IMG/VR virus record: IMGVR_UViG_3300049432_000082
Coordinates: 1-21,909 of that record
Origin: a virus
Direction: 5' to 3' (one strand)
DNA: 21,909 bases
Part shown: positions 2,251 through 13,026 of the stretch, in pieces
How positions within the stretch are numbered: the first letter of the stretch is position 1
Layout of the letters: each line of letters starts with the position of its first letter
The notes under the pieces: generated by a model
Told to the model about the DNA's origin: nothing
Databases searched by the model: none
The model's input: the letters and a program-made list of their open reading frames with translations, nothing else
Made by a program: the position numbers and the translations under genes

Positions 2251-2426
2251 AGGGCACCGCCGGTGAGCGCGACGGTCTCCACGGGGCGCCACAGGCAGGA
2301 CGGGCGGATCGACCCGAGGTCCCCTCGGTGCCACAGTCGGCGGGGCCGGAACTCCTCGTCGAGCTCGTACTCACCGCCGCCGTACATCTCGGCGTAGAGC
2401 TCCAGCGCGAGCTGCTCGTCCGTCAT
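2247..2426 (-). CDS. Small hypothetical protein between RusA and WhiB (59 aa)
   Basis: ATG 2426-2424 overlaps the RusA stop (ATGA), and the TGA at 2249-2247 overlaps the GTG of the WhiB gene (GTGA). The 59-residue product begins MTDEQLALELYAEMYGGG, is acidic in its first half (ELDEEF) and basic and Trp-containing in the second (RPRRLWHRGD). No family is recognised. Exact stop-start overlaps at both ends make it a convincing gene despite its size. Confidence 0.65.
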   Translation of the reverse strand: MTDEQLALELYAEMYGGGEYELDEEFRPRRLWHRGDLGSIRPSCLWRPVETVALTGGAL

Positions 2427-2983
2427 GGCGCGACCGCCCGGATCCGGATGACGGCGCCGGGAACCGTCAACGCGTCCTGGTGCCCGCCCGGATACACCTT
2501 CGCGGCCTCCGTGACCCTGGAGACCTGCTTGTCGTCATCCCAGATCCCGGAGGACGTGATGGCGTCGAGGCACCCGCGGATCGCCTTGTCGATATCGGGG
2601 TAGCCGAGGTGCTCCGCGGGCGCGCTGGCCTTGAGCACGCTCGCGTTCCGCCCGGTCCCGAAGTGCGAGCCGGGGCGCTTGAACGTGAACACCAGCGAGA
2701 CGTGCACCGGTGTCCCGCGAGCGAACAGGGGCCGCGCGACGCCGGGGTGCATCTCCGCCACCGCCGACGCGGCCGCGTCTCGTACGGACTGCCGCCAGGG
2801 CCGGAGCCGCTTGTCGTTGTCGTCGATGAACCGGTTCCCGGGGACCATCTTCTTCGATCCCTGGCCGATGACCTGGCCCTCGACGACGATGACGAGGTGG
2901 TCGCGGATCCCGACCTCGGCCGCGGCCTCGGGGATGGGCATGACCCCGAGGTCCGGGTCGAGCGCGTCCTGATGCGCGTTCAT
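2423..2983 (-). CDS. RusA-like Holliday junction resolvase
   Basis: The 186-residue protein is assigned to the RusA/crossover junction endodeoxyribonuclease family from its metal-binding signature: YPDIDKAIRGCLDAI (128-142) with Asp130 and Asp132, then GIWDDDKQV (146-154) with Asp149-Asp151. The N-terminal beta strand with VIGQGSKKM (38-46) and the central VHVSLVFTFKRP (93-103) also fit. RusA cleaves four-way junctions made during phage recombination and replication. The start at ATG 2983 overlaps the preceding stop (ATGA). Longer upstream starts would run through the preceding gene in another frame. It works naturally with the RecE/RecT-like pair encoded just upstream. Confidence 0.88.
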   Translation of the reverse strand: MNAHQDALDPDLGVMPIPEAAAEVGIRDHLVIVVEGQVIGQGSKKMVPGNRFIDDNDKRLRPWRQSVRDAAASAVAEMHPGVARPLFARGTPVHVSLVFTFKRPGSHFGTGRNASVLKASAPAEHLGYPDIDKAIRGCLDAITSSGIWDDDKQVSRVTEAAKVYPGGHQDALTVPGAVIRIRAVAP

Positions 2984-3165
2984 CGGCGGGCCTTGCAGAG
3001 CAGGCATTCGGCGCGGCCCGGGTCGGGTTCGCCGAGGAAGCGCGCGGTCGTCTCGTGGCCGAGCAGCAGGTGCAGTTGCCGGATGAACACGGCGGCCGGG
3101 TGGCGGTCGGTGAGCATCGAGTAGCCCTCGTCGCCTGGCACGAGGGCGTCCTGATGGGCCGTCAC
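2980..3165 (-). CDS. Small hypothetical protein with C-terminal CxxC (61 aa)
   Basis: GTG 3165-3163 overlaps the upstream stop (GTGA), and the stop overlaps the RusA start (ATGA). The 61-residue product has a helical middle (AAVFIRQLHLLLGHETTARFL broken at the Gly) and ends in CLLCKARR, a single CxxC that may bind metal on dimerisation. Its first eight residues (M/V-TAHQDAL) nearly repeat those of RusA (MNAHQDAL), a small duplication described in the findings. Family unknown. Confidence 0.65.
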   Translation of the reverse strand: MTAHQDALVPGDEGYSMLTDRHPAAVFIRQLHLLLGHETTARFLGEPDPGRAECLLCKARR

Positions 3166-3353
3166 GACAGGTACTCGTCCGCTGTGCGGGCAACGTCGGT
3201 GAGCGCGATCGCGGCGAGGCGGTACGCCTCCGCCTGCGCGCTCATGCCCATGCGCATCGACGTCGCGGACGCGCGGCGGTGCTCGGTGGCCTTACCGCGG
3301 AGCCACTCGGCGACCGGCGGGGGGTCGACGACGATCTGGATAGGGTCCGTCAC
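3162..3353 (-). CDS. Small hypothetical protein (63 aa)
   Basis: GTG 3353-3351 overlaps the stop of the RecT-like gene (GTGA), and its own TGA overlaps the next GTG. The 63-residue product starts with a short strand (IQIVVDPPPVAEWL) and continues as one long amphipathic helix rich in Ala, Arg and Met up to EYLS. There are no cysteines or membrane segments. I do not recognise the family; it is supported by position and overlaps. Confidence 0.62.
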   Translation of the reverse strand: MTDPIQIVVDPPPVAEWLRGKATEHRRASATSMRMGMSAQAEAYRLAAIALTDVARTADEYLS

Positions 3354-4270
3354 GACGTCGTCTCCTGCGGTGGCGCCCAGTGGGAGTTGACCTCCGGGTC
3401 GGGGTCCTCGACTGCGACGGCTTGCTCGGCGGCCGGGCCCGGGGTGGAAGACCCGGCCGCCTGCTTGGTGGTCTTGCCGCTGATCTCCGCGACGGTGACG
3501 CGCTCCTGCGGGAACTCGTCCTCGACGCGGACCTCACCGCGCTGCAGCGACTTGTAGATGACGGTCAACTGCGCGACGTCGTGCTCGGTCCACTTCGCGG
3601 TCTGCCGCGAGATCCGCTGCTCGAGCTGGTCCGCGGTGACCCCGAGGGCGGCGAACGCGTCGACGGCCTTTGAGATCCGTTGCGGGAGGGGAATCCCGCC
3701 GCCGTCCTTCAACGTCTGCGTGCACAGGTCGACGGCCTCGTCGACGAGCCACGGCGGGAGGATCGCCCAGATGGCCTGACGGAGCCGTCGCGCGCCCTGG
3801 TTGGTGTTGTTCTCGTACACGTCGCGAAGGTCGACCAGGCGCTTCGGCCCGGTCTTCGTGTCCCGGGAGTGGGGGACGATGAAGATCTGCGACGAGCGGG
3901 TGTTCGTCTGCAGGTCCCACGCGTAGGCCTGCATCTCCGACTGGCCGTGCCCGTCGTCGCGGGCCATTTCGGAGATCCCGTAGGTGACGTTCCCCCAGAT
4001 CCGGGCGAGCTCGCGGGCGAGGTGCACGGTCGGGCCGGAGACCTGCTGGCCGCCGCGGGTGAACCGGTAGAACGCCCGCTCCGCGAGGCGCATCTGACGG
4101 CACGACTCGCGCATGGCGCGCAACGCGGTCTGCTCGTCGCGGGGGCACTGCTGCGCGACGACGAGCTGGCCGTAGACCTCCGCGGCGGCGCGTGACTGCT
4201 CGACGGCGGTGGCCTGGCCCACCCGTACCGGTGCGGCCGCGGGGGTGGGCAGGTCGAGGTCAGTCGTCAT
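3350..4270 (-). CDS. Probable RecT-like single-strand annealing protein (306 aa)
   Basis: ATG 4270 lies 11 bases inside the end of the RecE-like nuclease gene, so the two are almost certainly co-translated. The protein has a Pro/Ala-rich start, then a conserved-looking core (about 25-230). The core contains FYRFTRGGQQVSGPTVHLAR (67-86) and an aromatic/acidic stretch SEMQAYAWDLQTN that resembles proteins paired with RecE-like nucleases in actinophages. The C-terminal 70 residues are acidic and low in complexity. In such pairs the exonuclease makes 3' single strands and this protein anneals them. I assign function mainly from the pairing and from overall resemblance, since no short catalytic motif decides it. 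An unrelated early phage protein cannot be excluded. Confidence 0.65.
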   Translation of the reverse strand: MTTDLDLPTPAAAPVRVGQATAVEQSRAAAEVYGQLVVAQQCPRDEQTALRAMRESCRQMRLAERAFYRFTRGGQQVSGPTVHLARELARIWGNVTYGISEMARDDGHGQSEMQAYAWDLQTNTRSSQIFIVPHSRDTKTGPKRLVDLRDVYENNTNQGARRLRQAIWAILPPWLVDEAVDLCTQTLKDGGGIPLPQRISKAVDAFAALGVTADQLEQRISRQTAKWTEHDVAQLTVIYKSLQRGEVRVEDEFPQERVTVAEISGKTTKQAAGSSTPGPAAEQAVAVEDPDPEVNSHWAPPQETTS

Positions 4271-5159
4271 CGTCCATCTCCAGGGTGAGGCGGTTCTCCA
4301 GCCAGGCGGGCAGCGCGAGGTTGAGGACCTCGTCGGAGTAGCCGGGCCACCGCCCGGACGCCCGGCAGCGGCGGTACACGTTCAGGGCGCGGGTGTTGCG
4401 CGCGCGCCCGAGCTGCATCGAGATGGTGCTCAGTTGAGCGACCGTCACGACGTAGGGCGCGTCCTTCTCCTGGAAGACGAAGACGAACACCGGGGGCTGG
4501 TCGAGGTCGAGGAGCGCCTCGATCGCGTCGAGGTTCCACGCGGCCTGCATGTAGTACCCGAACCGGCCGACGGAGGCCTCGATGTCGTCGGGGGCCGCGG
4601 ACGCGCACGTCTTGTACTCGGGCACGATCAGCCGCCGGCCGGGAACGGCCGCGGGGAGCCAGTCGGGCCGGGAGCGGCGCATCACCCGCTGCTCGCCTTG
4701 GCCGTCCCACCAGAACAGCGACCGCTCCGCGACACCGGTGCCGGGGGCGAAGAGCTTCCCCGTGATCGGATGCGCCCGCAGCGCCTCCGCCATCGGGAGC
4801 ACGACCTCGTCGTACTCGCGACGCAGGATGGGGGCCTTCGCCGCCGCGTACGCCTCATCGCGGGCGACCTGCGCGGCCTTCGTCCGGTAGTCCGAGGCCT
4901 CGATCACGACGACGTCCTCACCGTCGCCGAGGACCTCACGGTGCGCGCAGTGCCCGAAGTCGTAGTGCCGTTTCTCGGGGCGCCCGTGCTCCTGCTCCCA
5001 CCGGAACTTCGCGGGGCACCCGGGCGGGAGGAGCCGGCGGGCACCGGTCGAGGACAGCGACCCGCCGGGGAAGGGGTCGCGGTGGTAGTCCGCGGACGGG
5101 ATGTCGTAGATCCCGGGCTCGGTGATGACGAGCGGCTCGACGAGGGTCTCGGCGGTCAT
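4260..5159 (-). CDS. RecE-like PD-(D/E)XK exonuclease
   Basis: The 299-residue protein matches the RecE/exodeoxyribonuclease VIII C-terminal nuclease family (PDDEXK, DUF3799 type). Visible family marks in order are YH near 25, SLSSTGARRLL (34-44), CPAKFRWE (48-55), YDFGHCAHREVL (66-77), RTKAAQVARDEA (92-103) and E145. The catalytic D166-WLP and EYK (181-183) follow, with GYYMQAAWNLD (201-211) and FQEKDAPYVV (229-238). The usual DYK is EYK here, which still keeps the lysine. It would degrade the 5' strand at double-strand ends to feed the RecT-like partner. The start overlaps the upstream stop (ATGA). The protein ends in an acidic run. Confidence 0.88.
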   Translation of the reverse strand: MTAETLVEPLVITEPGIYDIPSADYHRDPFPGGSLSSTGARRLLPPGCPAKFRWEQEHGRPEKRHYDFGHCAHREVLGDGEDVVVIEASDYRTKAAQVARDEAYAAAKAPILRREYDEVVLPMAEALRAHPITGKLFAPGTGVAERSLFWWDGQGEQRVMRRSRPDWLPAAVPGRRLIVPEYKTCASAAPDDIEASVGRFGYYMQAAWNLDAIEALLDLDQPPVFVFVFQEKDAPYVVTVAQLSTISMQLGRARNTRALNVYRRCRASGRWPGYSDEVLNLALPAWLENRLTLEMDDDD

Positions 5160-6537: not shown

Positions 6538-6759
6538 TCACGCGACCGCGCCGTTCGCCGCGTCGCTGGATGTGGTCGCGGCCTGCCGCGCGACGCGGAG
6601 CGCCTCAACGGCCGACTGGTCGAACAGGAACGCGCCGTTCGGTCCGGGTAGCTGTTGGGCCGGCGCCAACTTGCCGTCTGCGACGAGTCGGTGGACGGTA
6701 CGCAGGCTGACCCCGAGATGCTGGGCGACCTGTGGCGACGTGATGAGCATGAATCGCAC
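6538..6759 (-). CDS. Excisionase-like / MerR-type HTH DNA-binding protein
   Basis: The 73-residue protein is a winged helix-turn-helix of the HTH_17/excisionase type: ITSPQVAQHLGVSLRTVHRL (6-25) is the HTH, and DGKLAPAQQ with FLFDQSAVEAL (44-54) is the usual wing and closing helix. It starts at GTG 6759, or at ATG 6750 three codons later. A GAGG lies about 13 bases before the GTG, so the start is uncertain. It is divergent from the repressor gene across a 90-base gap, the place where cro sits in BPs-like phages. It may therefore serve as recombination directionality factor, as Cro-like switch, or as both. Confidence 0.75.
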   Translation of the reverse strand: MRFMLITSPQVAQHLGVSLRTVHRLVADGKLAPAQQLPGPNGAFLFDQSAVEALRVARQAATTSSDAANGAVA

Positions 6760-6849
6760 ACTGACACAATTGCCTCATGACGCGCAATGCGACGTCAGCG
6801 TGTCCCTGAACCATGGCGCACGTGCGTCACGCCGTGGCATCATCGGCGC
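6760..6849. promoter_or_regulatory. Divergent repressor / HTH control region with TGACG-type half-sites
   Basis: This 90-base gap must hold both divergent promoters. It contains an inverted pair TGACG (6778-6782) and CGTCA (6793-6797) ten bases apart. A third related half-site, GCGTCA, lies at 6824-6829 (TGACGC on the minus strand). These look like operator half-sites for the repressor or its divergent neighbour. I cannot place the -10 and -35 boxes with confidence. The repressor ATG has no Shine-Dalgarno sequence, so its message may be leaderless. Confidence 0.45.
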
Positions 6850-7218
6850 ATGGTGACCACGGCAGTGATCCCGTCGCTACGGCGACGGTGGCGGTTGAAG
6901 ATTGCGATGGAGGACGCGCGGTTCACGTCCTCGGAGATTGCGGCCGAGCTCGGCGTCAGCCGCGCCACGGTGAGCCGCTGGTTGGCCAGCGACACCGTGC
7001 CGGTCCGCTCGGCGTACCTCAAACAGTGGGCAGCGGCCTGCGGCGTAGATGAGACCTGGTTGATCTACGGCCCGGCCTGCGAATGCTGCGGGTCCATGCC
7101 CGGCCCGGTGTCGAATCCGCACCCCGTCGACGAGTTGCTCGAGGCCGAGGGTAGTCCCCGGTATTACTGGCCAGTCGGCACGCACACGCCCACCATCGCA
7201 GCCGCAGCCGCCGCGTGA
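6850..7218 (+). CDS. Probable immunity repressor, HTH protein with alanine-rich C-terminal tail
   Basis: The 122-residue protein begins at ATG 6850. Residues 25-46 form a clear helix-turn-helix (RFTSSEIAAELGVSRATVSR), followed by WLAS and a helical extension (SAYLKQWAAACGVDETWLIYG) typical of small Cro/CI-type repressors. No peptidase domain for RecA-driven self-cleavage is present. A CECC cluster (77-80) follows, then a flexible tail ending THTPTIAAAAAA. The final alanines resemble an ssrA-type tag read by ClpXP. It lies upstream of, and in the same direction as, the integrase and is divergent from the HTH gene, as the repressor does in BPs-like phages. The alternative is a plain lysogeny-control or Cro-like regulator. 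Confidence 0.75.
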   Translation: MVTTAVIPSLRRRWRLKIAMEDARFTSSEIAAELGVSRATVSRWLASDTVPVRSAYLKQWAAACGVDETWLIYGPACECCGSMPGPVSNPHPVDELLEAEGSPRYYWPVGTHTPTIAAAAAA

Positions 7219-7225
7219 AGACCGC

Positions 7226-7262
7226 GGTGATCACCACATGTGGTAAGGGTTCTGTCTCCACA
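7226..7262. other. Overlapping palindromes between repressor and integrase, candidate attP core or control site
   Basis: Two perfect palindromes overlap: GGTGATCACC (7226-7235) and ACCACATGTGGT (7233-7244). A further CCACA at 7258-7262 makes TGTGG-N14-CCACA with the second. This density of inverted repeats just upstream of a tyrosine integrase fits core-type recombinase sites. A regulatory site for int is equally possible. No second attachment copy is in the window to test this. Confidence 0.35.
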
Positions 7263-7313
7263 AGATCGCCCGATCCGCGCGGCGCAGGCCGGCTTCGTCG
7301 GCATCCTGCCGCG

Positions 7314-8183
7314 ATGAACGATCACGTCACCCTTGACCCCGGTACGTCCGATCCCGACCCGACGGCGCTGCTCGACCGATGGGCCATGGCGATGCTCGCC
7401 GAGGGCCTCTCCCCGGCGACGGTGAAGATGCGCACCGGGGCCGTCCGCCGCGCCGCTCTGGCCACGGGGGAGTCGCCATTGCGGTTCACCCCCGACGGGC
7501 TGCGGTACTGGTTCGCCGGGCACACGAACGCGAACACCCGCTCGACGTACTACGCGAGCATCGTCGCGTGGCAGGCGTGGCTCCTCGTCGAGGGCCTCAC
7601 GGCGACGAACCCGACCGCGGTTATCCGCCGCCCACGGCGCCCGCAGGGCCTCCCACGGCCGTGCTCGACCCTCGGCCTGCACCAGGTCCTCGCGTTGCCG
7701 CTGACGACCCGTACCCGGGCGATGGTGATCCTCGCGGCGTACGCGGGGCTGCGGGCGCACGAGATCGCGAAGTTCCACGCGGAGGACCTCGACGTCGTCG
7801 AGGGGACGCTGCGGGTCACGGGTAAGGGCGGCCATGAGGCGGTCCTGCCGGCGCACCCGGAGGTGGTCGCGCTCGCCGCGGTGATGCCGGCGGCGGGGCT
7901 GTGGTTCGAGTCGCCGAAGAACGTCGGGCACCCGGTGTGGCCGAACACGGTGACGAACTCGGTCGGGGCGGCGATGAAGCGCGCGCACGTGCGGGGCGGG
8001 GCGCACTCGTTGCGGCACTGGTTCGCGACGTTCCTGCTCTCGGGCGGGGCGAACCTGCGCGAGGTGCAGGACCTGCTGCGGCACGCGAGCGTGTCGACGA
8101 CGCAGATCTACACGTTGGTGTGCCCGGACGCGTTGCGGGCCGCGGTGCTGCGCCTGCCCGGGGCGGCCGGGCCCGGCCGATGA
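7314..8183 (+). CDS. int: Tyrosine integrase
   Basis: The 289-residue protein has a SAM-like core-binding domain (about 15-105) and a catalytic domain. All catalytic positions are seen: R147 in AYAGLRAHE, K171 in VTGKGGHE, H231 and R234 in HSLRHWF, H257 in LLRHAS and the nucleophile Y266 in STTQIY. It would integrate and, with the excisionase-like protein, excise the phage. The start used is ATG 7314, which has no good ribosome-binding site. A GTG at 7215 overlapping the repressor stop (GTGA) would add 33 residues of atypical composition. No N-terminal arm-binding domain is obvious in the short form. It lies 95 bases after the repressor in the same direction. Confidence 0.93.
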   Translation: MNDHVTLDPGTSDPDPTALLDRWAMAMLAEGLSPATVKMRTGAVRRAALATGESPLRFTPDGLRYWFAGHTNANTRSTYYASIVAWQAWLLVEGLTATNPTAVIRRPRRPQGLPRPCSTLGLHQVLALPLTTRTRAMVILAAYAGLRAHEIAKFHAEDLDVVEGTLRVTGKGGHEAVLPAHPEVVALAAVMPAAGLWFESPKNVGHPVWPNTVTNSVGAAMKRAHVRGGAHSLRHWFATFLLSGGANLREVQDLLRHASVSTTQIYTLVCPDALRAAVLRLPGAAGPGR

Positions 8184-8867: not shown

Positions 8868-9076
8868 ACGGGGGCGAGCCGGTCCGGCGTGGCCGGGGGC
8901 GGCCGCCCGTGGGTCCGGAGGTCCGCGGTCTGCGCCTCGACGCGGGGGACCTGGCGGAGATCGAGGCACTGGCGGAGGCGCGGGGGGTGACGAGGTCGGT
9001 GGTGATCCGCGAGCTCGTCGGGGAGGCCCTCGAGGCGCGGCGCAGGAAGGTGGCACGGGCTCGGCCGAACGGTTGA
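8864..9076 (+). CDS. Ribbon-helix-helix DNA-binding protein with basic N-terminal arm (70 aa)
   Basis: GTG 8864 overlaps the preceding stop (GTGA), with GGAGG just before it. The N-terminus GGEPVRRGRGRPPVGPEV has an AT-hook-like RGRP core. A ribbon-helix-helix follows: strand VRGLRLDAGD, helix LAEIEALAEARG and helix VTRSVVIRELVGEALEAR. It ends in a basic tail. It would act as a dimeric transcription regulator and could control the lysogeny genes around it. The frame is open further upstream, but those starts would run through the membrane protein gene. Confidence 0.72.
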   Translation: MNGGEPVRRGRGRPPVGPEVRGLRLDAGDLAEIEALAEARGVTRSVVIRELVGEALEARRRKVARARPNG

Positions 9077-9096
9077 GTGCAGGCACGTCCGGTCAG

Positions 9097-9116
9097 GGTG
9101 CAACCAGTGGTTCACC
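9097..9116. promoter_or_regulatory. Operator-like dyad upstream of the lipoprotein gene
   Basis: GGTG(C)AACCA (9097-9106), one central G, and TGGTTCACC (9108-9116) form nine-base inverted arms with a single unpaired C. The dyad sits in the 78-base gap between the ribbon-helix-helix gene and the lipoprotein gene, about 40 bases before the lipoprotein start. It may be the binding site of that regulator. No clear -10/-35 pair is seen. Confidence 0.4.
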
Positions 9117-9154
9117 CCGGCCGTCCTAGTGATCAGATTCCAGGGGGGAACACC

Positions 9155-9601
9155 ATGAAGCGCATCATCACCGCGGCCCTCGCCGCGGCCGCGATCGTCG
9201 GCCTGTCCGGCTGCGCGGCCGCGAAGACCGACCAGGCCGCCGCCGCACCCGAGACGAAGCCCGCAGCCGCGGCATGCGAGACGCCGTCGAAGGCGCTGCT
9301 CACCACGATCGGGTCCGTCCTCGACTCCGGGGTGAAGCCCGGCCGCGCCGCCGCGGTCCGCTCGAGCGAGTTCGAGAAGGCCTGGTTCGTCGCCGTGAAG
9401 CTGAAGGGCGAGAGCATGGCCGACTCCGACCCCGCCGTCTTCGTCACGAACGACCTCGAGGGCCCCGGGACCATGTACGCCGTCGGTGGGATGTCGCACG
9501 AGTTCTCCGACCTCGGTCACGGTGAGGACACCGACGCGAAGTTCGCACAGACCTCCGCCGGCTACGCCGAGGCGATCGCGTGCACGAAGGCCGCGTCGTG
9601 A
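9155..9601 (+). CDS. Phage-encoded lipoprotein
   Basis: ATG 9155 follows AGGGGGG by about 8 bases. The protein (148 aa) has a classical lipoprotein signal peptide: basic MKR, an apolar core and the lipobox LSGC with C20 as the lipidated cysteine. An Ala/Pro-rich linker (21-40) leads to a globular domain (41-143) that begins and ends with a cysteine (C41 and C143), suggesting a disulfide. It would sit on the outer face of the membrane. Lipoproteins made from prophages can block infection by related phages (for example Llp of phage T5), but that role here is inference. It is co-translated with the next membrane-anchored gene. Confidence 0.8.
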   Translation: MKRIITAALAAAAIVGLSGCAAAKTDQAAAAPETKPAAAACETPSKALLTTIGSVLDSGVKPGRAAAVRSSEFEKAWFVAVKLKGESMADSDPAVFVTNDLEGPGTMYAVGGMSHEFSDLGHGEDTDAKFAQTSAGYAEAIACTKAAS

Positions 9602-11973: not shown

Positions 11974-12129
11974 TCAGGGGCGGGCGCCGTTGCCCTCACC
12001 GCGGCGGCGGTGACACAGGCACAGGCACGGCTGCTCGCAGAACTTGCAGGTACGGCGGCACCGCCCGTGCAGGCCGTGCAGGCACGCCGTCGACAGGTAC
12101 GCGTGGGTGTCCTCGTACGGGTCCGTCAC
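11974..12129 (-). CDS. Small cysteine-rich zinc-finger-like protein (51 aa)
   Basis: GTG 12129 overlaps the stop of the collagen-like gene (GTGA). The 51 residues carry C16, C24, C28, C31, C35, C37, C39 and H40 in a pattern [27 protein letters not shown], which should bind one or two zinc ions. Very similar short Cys/His proteins are familiar from actinophages but have no known role. The tail is basic. It is the last gene before the terminator. Confidence 0.7.
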
Positions 12130-12686
12130 GGCGCGGGCGGTGGTGGTGCGGTGGTGCACGTCCACGGGTCCGTCGGGACCGCCGACGGCGAGCAGTACAC
12201 GGTCGTCGGGCTGGCGCCGTCGCGGCCGTCCTTGCCGTCCGCTCCCGGTTTCCCGTCCGCCCCCGCGGGGCCCGCGTCACCGTCACGCCCAGGCGGCCCC
12301 GGCACACCCTGCGGGCCCACCGCGCCGGGCAGCCCCGGGTCGCCCTGGGGACCGGGTGGGCCGGGCGCACCGTCGACACCCGGCGGGCCCTGAGGACCGC
12401 GGGGGCCAGTGGGACCGCTCAGCCCCACCGGGCCGCGTTCGCCGGGCGGGACGTTGATGACCGGCGCCGGCGCCGGTTTGATCCCCGCGCCCTTCAGCTG
12501 CTCGATGAGGCGCTCCGCGTAGGCGTCCTGGGTCGCGAACGCGTCCTCGAGCTTGTCGGCCCGCTCGGCGAGGCGGGACTGCCCCGCCGCGGCCCACACC
12601 GAGAACGCCGCAGCGAGGAACAACCCGCCGAGCACGACGCCCACCAGCACCCGCCAGTTCGGGCGGTGGGTCTGCTCAACGCTCAT
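12126..12686 (-). CDS. Membrane-anchored collagen-like protein (186 aa)
   Basis: ATG 12686 lies 11 bases inside the end of the preceding gene. The 186-residue protein has a short cytoplasmic start, one membrane helix (about 12-34), a coiled-coil-like segment (36-66), a Pro linker, and then 26 uninterrupted Gly-X-Y triplets (82-159) of collagen type. The last 27 residues carry two cysteines and a Pro run. Collagen repeats are common in tail fibres, where they trimerise, but fibres do not normally have a membrane anchor. The protein may therefore be displayed on the infected cell, or the N-terminal helix may serve another assembly role. Confidence 0.78.
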
Positions 12687-13026
12687 CGCCCCGGCCCTCC
12701 CGCTCGAGCTGCTCAACGTGCCTGGCGTAGCGGGCGTCGCCGGGGTTCGCGATCCGGGCGAGCTGCGACTCGAGCTCGGCGACCCGCGTGCGTGCGCGTT
12801 CCGCGTCGGCCTCCGCGACCCGGGCCCGCTCGTCCGCTCGCGACGACGCGGTCTCCTGCTGGCTGGCGAGCTGGCGCTTGAGTTCGTCGCGCTCCTGGCG
12901 CCACTCGTCACGCTCGACCTTGTGCTCGGCCTCGCGGGACGAGACGAACCGGAACATGTACCCGATCACCATCACCAGGGACCCGACGACGCCGAGGGAC
13001 GGGAGCAGGGTCGCGGCGTCGCCCAT
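12676..13026 (-). CDS. Membrane protein with coiled coil (116 aa)
   Basis: ATG 13026 is preceded by GGAGGAGGGCGAGG within about 25 bases. The protein has an N-terminal membrane helix (about 8-27, [18 protein letters not shown]) and then a long, highly charged coiled coil (30-98) rich in Arg, Glu and Ala ([19 protein letters not shown]). This is the topology of a single-pass inner-membrane protein with a cytoplasmic rod. It precedes and overlaps the collagen-like membrane protein gene, so the two probably act together. A class of holin or a lysis regulator is possible. I cannot decide. Confidence 0.7.

What the first reader, a model, noticed from the sequence alone, without database searches (positions are those of the whole stretch)
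6538..8183. Repressor-integrase cassette that may use integration-dependent immunity
The order excisionase/Cro-like HTH (divergent) - repressor - integrase matches phages such as BPs and Brujita. In those, attP lies in the repressor gene, and integration removes a C-terminal degradation tag so that only the prophage form is stable. Here the repressor has no self-cleavage domain, has a flexible tail after residue 80 and ends in TIAAAAAA, which resembles an ssrA-like ClpXP signal. The low similarity to known repressors could make it an independent example.
Basis: partly seen in the sequence, partly recalled or inferred. Interest (0 to 1): 0.8.

Follow-up and report, generated by a model that had tools for sequence, protein, structure and literature searches.

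The report
Phage switch probably triggered by integration
A bacterial virus carries a compact on/off switch of a known type, in which inserting into the host chromosome probably trims and stabilises its repressor; the insertion site itself could not be proven, so this is best seen as a divergent new member of a known kind.

Summary
The cassette is real: excisionase-like HTH gene (6538-6759, -), HTH repressor (6850-7218, +, 122 aa), tyrosine integrase (7314-8183, +). The repressor has no cleavage-domain hit, a tail predicted disordered from residue 81, and ends TIAAAAAA. Both proteins are homologous to known integration-dependent immunity systems (integrase 42-45% to the listed best phage hits), so this is no independent invention. 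In 9 of 12 relatives checked, a reverse-complement tRNA T-arm lies in the repressor tail. Two integrated prophages (integrases 45% and 41%) have repressors truncated at tRNA-Arg; in one the detached tail ending LRLAAA lies beside the integrase. In the window and its one close relative L002 (88%), the corresponding stretch, 7076-7134, keeps an SNPxP relic and is the cassette's longest identical run, but conservation statistics are weak and it is no tRNA arm. No attB was found. attP inside the repressor is likely but unproven; a conserved block between repressor and integrase is the main rival. Non-tRNA sites and untagged integrases are already published for such systems (PMC8092301).

The parts
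6538..6759 (-). Excisionase/Cro-like HTH gene, 73 aa, divergent from the repressor
   Evidence: HTH_17; PHROG 66
6760..6849 (.). Divergent control region between HTH gene and repressor; 44 nt (6762-6805) identical in L002
   Evidence: regulatory role inferred
6850..7218 (+). Repressor, 122 aa; HTH domain about residues 12-73, disordered tail from 81
7076..7134 (+). Block A, candidate attP core inside the repressor: 59 nt identical in L002; encodes VSNPHPVDEL, with the T-loop-like TCGAA in the same frame as in relatives with tRNA cores
   Evidence: role inferred
7192..7215 (+). C-terminal TIAAAAAA, candidate degradation signal
   Evidence: function inferred
7228..7280 (+). Block B, conserved stretch after the repressor stop (2 differences in 53 nt), with imperfect inverted repeat TGTGG..CCACA; rival attP or integrase control element
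7314..8183 (+). Tyrosine integrase, 289 aa from ATG 7314 (frame open from GTG 7215), catalytic residues R147 K171 H231 R234 H257 Y266 present, no -AA end
   Evidence: catalytic role of these positions recalled

Best explanation
An integration-dependent immunity cassette of the BPs/Brujita/cluster P kind. Inferred course: in the virion form repressor and integrase are made together and the full-length repressor is degraded through its alanine-rich end. The integrase recombines attP, most likely within 7076-7134 in the repressor tail, with a host site; the repressor gene is thereby cut somewhere between codons 76 and 95. The trimmed repressor keeps its HTH domain, loses the tail, is stable, represses the divergent excisionase/early genes and confers immunity. 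The host site of this lineage is probably not an intact tRNA arm. Shown here: gene order, homology, predicted disordered tail, AAA ends in window and L002, and truncation at both ends in two more distant prophages. Inferred: attP position, degradation, stability and immunity in this phage.
For: Same gene order as BigNuz, Babsiella, Fishburne. PHROG 2328 repressor and about 43% integrases. Rc tRNA T-arm inside the repressor tail in 9 of 12 relatives checked. In G223 the repressor ends ..RDSNPQPSDP inside an intact tRNA-Arg(ACG), 40.5 kb from the core copy on the integrase side; in G111 attL ends ..RRDSNPQPSDP and attR carries the same core plus YVGAFGGLRLAAA before the integrase. Window VSNPHPVDELL aligns with GRU3 DSNPEPADELL; permuted tails hold SNPxP with P 0.0016 (window) and 0.0020 (L002). 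Block A is the longest identical run (59 nt) between window and L002; 0 of 10 four-fold sites changed against 16 of 47 in the rest of the repressor, P 0.026, chosen after the fact. HTH domain ends before block A.
Against: No attB and no integrated copy of this lineage found. Statistics for block A are weak: a run of 57 nt or more in permutations P 0.12; longest unchanged four-fold run in the repressor P 0.29; A against integrase P 0.10. Block A forms no T-arm and lies 18 residues after the conserved W against 22-28 in nine relatives. Block B is about as conserved. L013 (Nyceirae), L014 (Cole) and L002 lack a T-arm in the repressor. The integrase lacks the -AA end that 40 of 80 relatives have.
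Confidence: 0.6

Rival explanations
1. attP is block B (7228-7280), just behind the repressor stop. Integration leaves the repressor whole and only separates the integrase from the repressor promoter; the alanine tail sets repressor turnover but is never removed.
For: 2 differences in 53 nt between window and L002; imperfect inverted repeat around a short spacer; read as integrase codons, changes do not favour third positions.
Against: In the two resolved prophages and in the 9 relatives with a T-arm the core is in the repressor tail. Block B could equally be an integrase control element. No attB for it in 296 genomes.
Confidence: 0.22
2. Ordinary repressor and integrase with attP farther away, for instance in the conserved non-coding block 9062-9160.
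For: 99 nt at 93% identity to L002, in front of different genes in the two phages. Some relatives (L050, L067, L071) have an intact tRNA-Lys close behind the integrase.
Against: The block ends at a start codon and reads like a promoter/ribosome-site region; two prophage relatives have the core at the repressor. No convincing attB in 246 genomes.
Confidence: 0.12
3. A decayed system: the core has lost its target and the phage no longer integrates by this route.
For: Block A keeps a T-loop relic but no stem.
Against: Catalytic residues are present, block A is unchanged in L002, and codon changes in the integrase favour third positions (12, 7, 29 and 14, 10, 23 by position).
Confidence: 0.06

Closest known systems
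Integration-dependent immunity of mycobacteriophages BPs (cluster G), Brujita/Babsiella (cluster I) and cluster P (BigNuz, Fishburne)
   Same: HTH/excisionase divergent from repressor, repressor followed by a short tyrosine integrase; 42-44% integrase identity; AA-type repressor ends
   Different: Known members checked here have a tRNA T-arm in the repressor and integrases ending in AA; the window has neither
Gordonia phages GRU3, Emperor, Wizard/Bakery type
   Same: Closest repressor hits; SNPxP-DEL stretch shared with GRU3; published as integration-dependent (PMC5559632, passages, for GRU3 and Wizard)
   Different: tRNA cores; GRU3 attP is a 37-bp tRNA-Lys core in that paper
M. abscessus prophages MabB (GD34-2) and the non-tRNA systems MabC/H/N/O
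   Same: GD34-2: 42% integrase, excise-repressor-integrase region. The paper reports systems with non-tRNA attB and with untagged integrases (PMC8092301, passages, section 10)
   Different: GD34-2 has two genes between repressor and integrase and a tRNA core; the non-tRNA systems were not compared by sequence here

Membership tests
Integration-dependent immunity (BPs/Brujita kind) | Repressor and integrase adjacent and co-directional, Cro/Xis-like gene divergent | tested here: met
Integration-dependent immunity (BPs/Brujita kind) | attP core inside the repressor gene | tested here: inconclusive
   Block A suggestive; no attB; no T-arm
Integration-dependent immunity (BPs/Brujita kind) | Repressor of the virion form ends in an ssrA-like -AA signal | tested here: met
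   TIAAAAAA, and SAAA in L002; by sequence only
Integration-dependent immunity (BPs/Brujita kind) | Full-length form degraded, truncated form stable, active and immunising | not testable with these tools
   needs experiment; truncation seen by sequence in relatives G111 and G223 only
Integration-dependent immunity (BPs/Brujita kind) | Short integrase without arm-binding domain, no arm-type sites | tested here: inconclusive
   289 aa from ATG 7314; homology to relatives of similar length; arm sites not searched specifically
Integration-dependent immunity (BPs/Brujita kind) | Integrase ends in -AA (common, not universal) | tested here: not met
   GPGR and GGAR; 40 of 80 relatives end AA; untagged integrases are published
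LexA-type self-cleaving phage repressors | C-terminal self-cleavage (S24) domain | tested here: not met
   no such family among the hits shown; tail disordered

The most novel reading that the evidence does not exclude
A lineage whose attP core inside the repressor descends from a tRNA T-arm but has been rewritten for a non-tRNA host site, keeping the truncation switch while changing the target, with the degradation signal on the repressor only and not on the integrase.
Probability: 0.35. Interest if true: 0.5.

Novelty: new member of a known kind. Interest (0 to 1): 0.34.

Why it matters
It extends a compact lysogeny switch to an uncultured phage lineage of unknown host. If attP is confirmed in block A, it would be a case in which a tRNA-derived core was retargeted without losing the switch, and the window/L002 pair would make the steps of that change testable.

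Tried and rejected
attB searches by DNA (samples overlap): block A, 296 genomes, 271 with some match at E up to 1; block B, 296, 21 at 0.001; 9062-9160, 246, 2 at 0.001; A plus B, 376, 5 at 1e-4; A, 13, none, and 189, one at 5e-5. Of these I read 16 stretches, 6, both, all 5 and the one. They lie in unrelated, mostly open reading frames (HATPase-like DTGPG motifs, NarG-like and others; names recalled from motifs); no tRNA overlaps any of them (one tRNA-Trp lies about 700 nt from the match in L132). I judge them chance. The rest and 15 genomes were not read.

Rfam found no tRNA in the cassette, but among ten loci with relatives of the cassette it reported a tRNA in only one (L044, E 0.87), so it is a weak test; the T-arm pattern is better. 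20- and 21-letter pieces of block A and a 21-letter piece of block B occur in viral contigs only in L002's contig; a piece of 9062-9160 in none. The genome-contig scan gave one relative at 39%. No block A match in E. coli genomes and only short weak ones in plasmids and phages. A tmRNA or tRNA-Gly reading of block A was considered by eye and dropped. Of five genomes found with the integrase, G048 and G120 gave no recognisable core, and G001 keeps repressor and integrase together.

Full report
The window is a virus record of 21,909 bases. The cassette lies between tail and lysis-type genes and a recombination gene group, both mostly on the minus strand. One search gives an HTH gene at 6538-6759 (-), a repressor ORF ending at 7218 (+; likely start ATG 6850, 122 aa) and an integrase ORF ending at 8183 (+; ATG 7314, frame open from GTG 7215). 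Family searches support the names. AlphaFold on 13 aligned sequences predicts helices in residues 12-73 and pLDDT below 50 in 81-122.

Both proteins belong to a known family. The integrase has matches in 535 phage records, all below 60% identity; the 60 listed are M. abscessus prophages and mycobacteriophages at 42-45%. The repressor matches 156 records, all below 60%; the 40 listed are Gordonia and Arthrobacter phages at 32-45% over part of its length. BigNuz, Babsiella and Fishburne have the same gene order. Integration-dependent immunity is described for mycobacteriophage clusters G, I, N and P (PMC4557955, passages; PMC9635641, passages), Gordonia phages (PMC5559632, passages), Bifidobacterium prophages (PMC6109161, passages) and M. 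abscessus prophages (PMC8092301, passages and section 10; PMC9934374, passages). The founding paper is not held.

I checked 12 relatives for a reverse-complement tRNA T-arm in the repressor tail. Nine have it (GRU3, phiGD34-2, BigNuz, Emperor, Bakery, Babsiella, Fishburne, L003/L005/L018, L004); three do not (L002, Nyceirae L013, Cole L014). Of these, 63 have at least 150 nt before the integrase match; 33 of the 63 carry a T-arm 130-300 nt upstream (12 distinct arm sequences, so not independent), whereas 3 carry one 301-900 nt upstream. With a profile from 11 repressors, 27 of the 80 have a repressor hit on the integrase strand, and in 16 of the 27 the arm lies inside that ORF; the 11 without include L002's record (L031), L050, L064 and the L095/L099/L107 group.

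With the window integrase, 5 of 394 genomes passed 1e-45. In G223 (41%) two copies of the core lie 40.5 kb apart. One is in an intact tRNA-Arg(ACG) next to a repressor ORF ending ..RATRDSNPQPSDP, with a divergent gene that looks excisionase-like by eye; the other is on the integrase side. In G111 (45%) contig C86 has a repressor ending ..WRARRDSNPQPSDP in a tRNA-Arg(ACG), and contig C83 has the same core followed by YVGAFGGLRLAAA and the integrase. Integration there removes 13 residues ending LAAA. Of the other three, G048 and G120 showed no recognisable core and G001 has repressor and integrase together.

The window has one close relative, L002 (IMGVR_UViG_3300048596_000027): 88% over 6538-8161, exactly the three genes, with weaker blocks elsewhere. 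The repressor tails diverge with indels over about 7168-7227, yet both end in AAA. The longest identical run is 7076-7134, 59 nt. Permutation gives P 0.12 for 57 or more. Four-fold sites: 0 of 10 changed there, 16 of 47 in the rest of the repressor up to 7170 (P 0.026, chosen after the fact), 35 of 166 in the integrase (P 0.10); the longest unchanged four-fold run in the repressor is unremarkable (P 0.29). The stretch encodes VSNPHPVDELL, aligned with GRU3 DSNPEPADELL, with TCGAA in the same frame as the T-loop of relatives. Permuted tails contain SNPxP with P 0.0016 and 0.0020. This suggests descent from a tRNA-type core; but it forms no T-arm.

Against this reading, 7228-7280 differs at only 2 of 53 positions and holds an imperfect inverted repeat found in no other record among the loci held. 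Read as integrase codons its changes avoid third positions. It may be attP or an integrase control element. A third block, 9062-9160, is 93% identical and precedes different genes in the two phages. attB searches gave only matches that I judge chance (readings). The host is unknown and published non-tRNA cores can be 3-25 bp (PMC8092301), so this absence says little.

The integrases of window and L002 end GPGR and GGAR, while 40 of the 80 relatives end in AA. Published systems include untagged integrases and non-tRNA sites, so these departures lie within known variation.

Verdict: by homology and architecture a divergent member of a known kind of switch; the defining attP position is likely but unproven.

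Noticed in passing
window 9062-9160; L002 7071-7168: Non-coding block 93% identical in the two phages, directly in front of different genes; may be a conserved promoter or regulatory site.
   Followed up: partly
L008 (Gordonia phage GRU3) 2740-2894: A 78-nt stretch holding the tRNA core and the repressor's 3' end occurs twice in tandem (starts 2740 and 2817), so the virion genome has two core copies.
   Followed up: partly
L095, L099, L106, L107 (about 2150-2565), L104 from 1: Repressor-like ORFs with different HTH halves (L106 against the others) share one tail plus integrase start, with no T-arm; looks like reassortment at a non-tRNA att site.
   Followed up: partly
L050 3336-3409; L067 and L071 3333-3406: An intact tRNA-Lys(TTT) lies close behind the integrase in three relatives whose repressor region has no T-arm.
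   Followed up: no
window 12126-12911 (-): ORF with long collagen-like Gly-X-Y runs, among the tail and lysis genes (by eye).
   Followed up: no
window 2426-5159 (-): RusA-like resolvase, PHROG 3657 protein (named ssDNA binding in Gordonia phage Mutzi) and exonuclease VIII-like protein form a recombination group.
   Followed up: no
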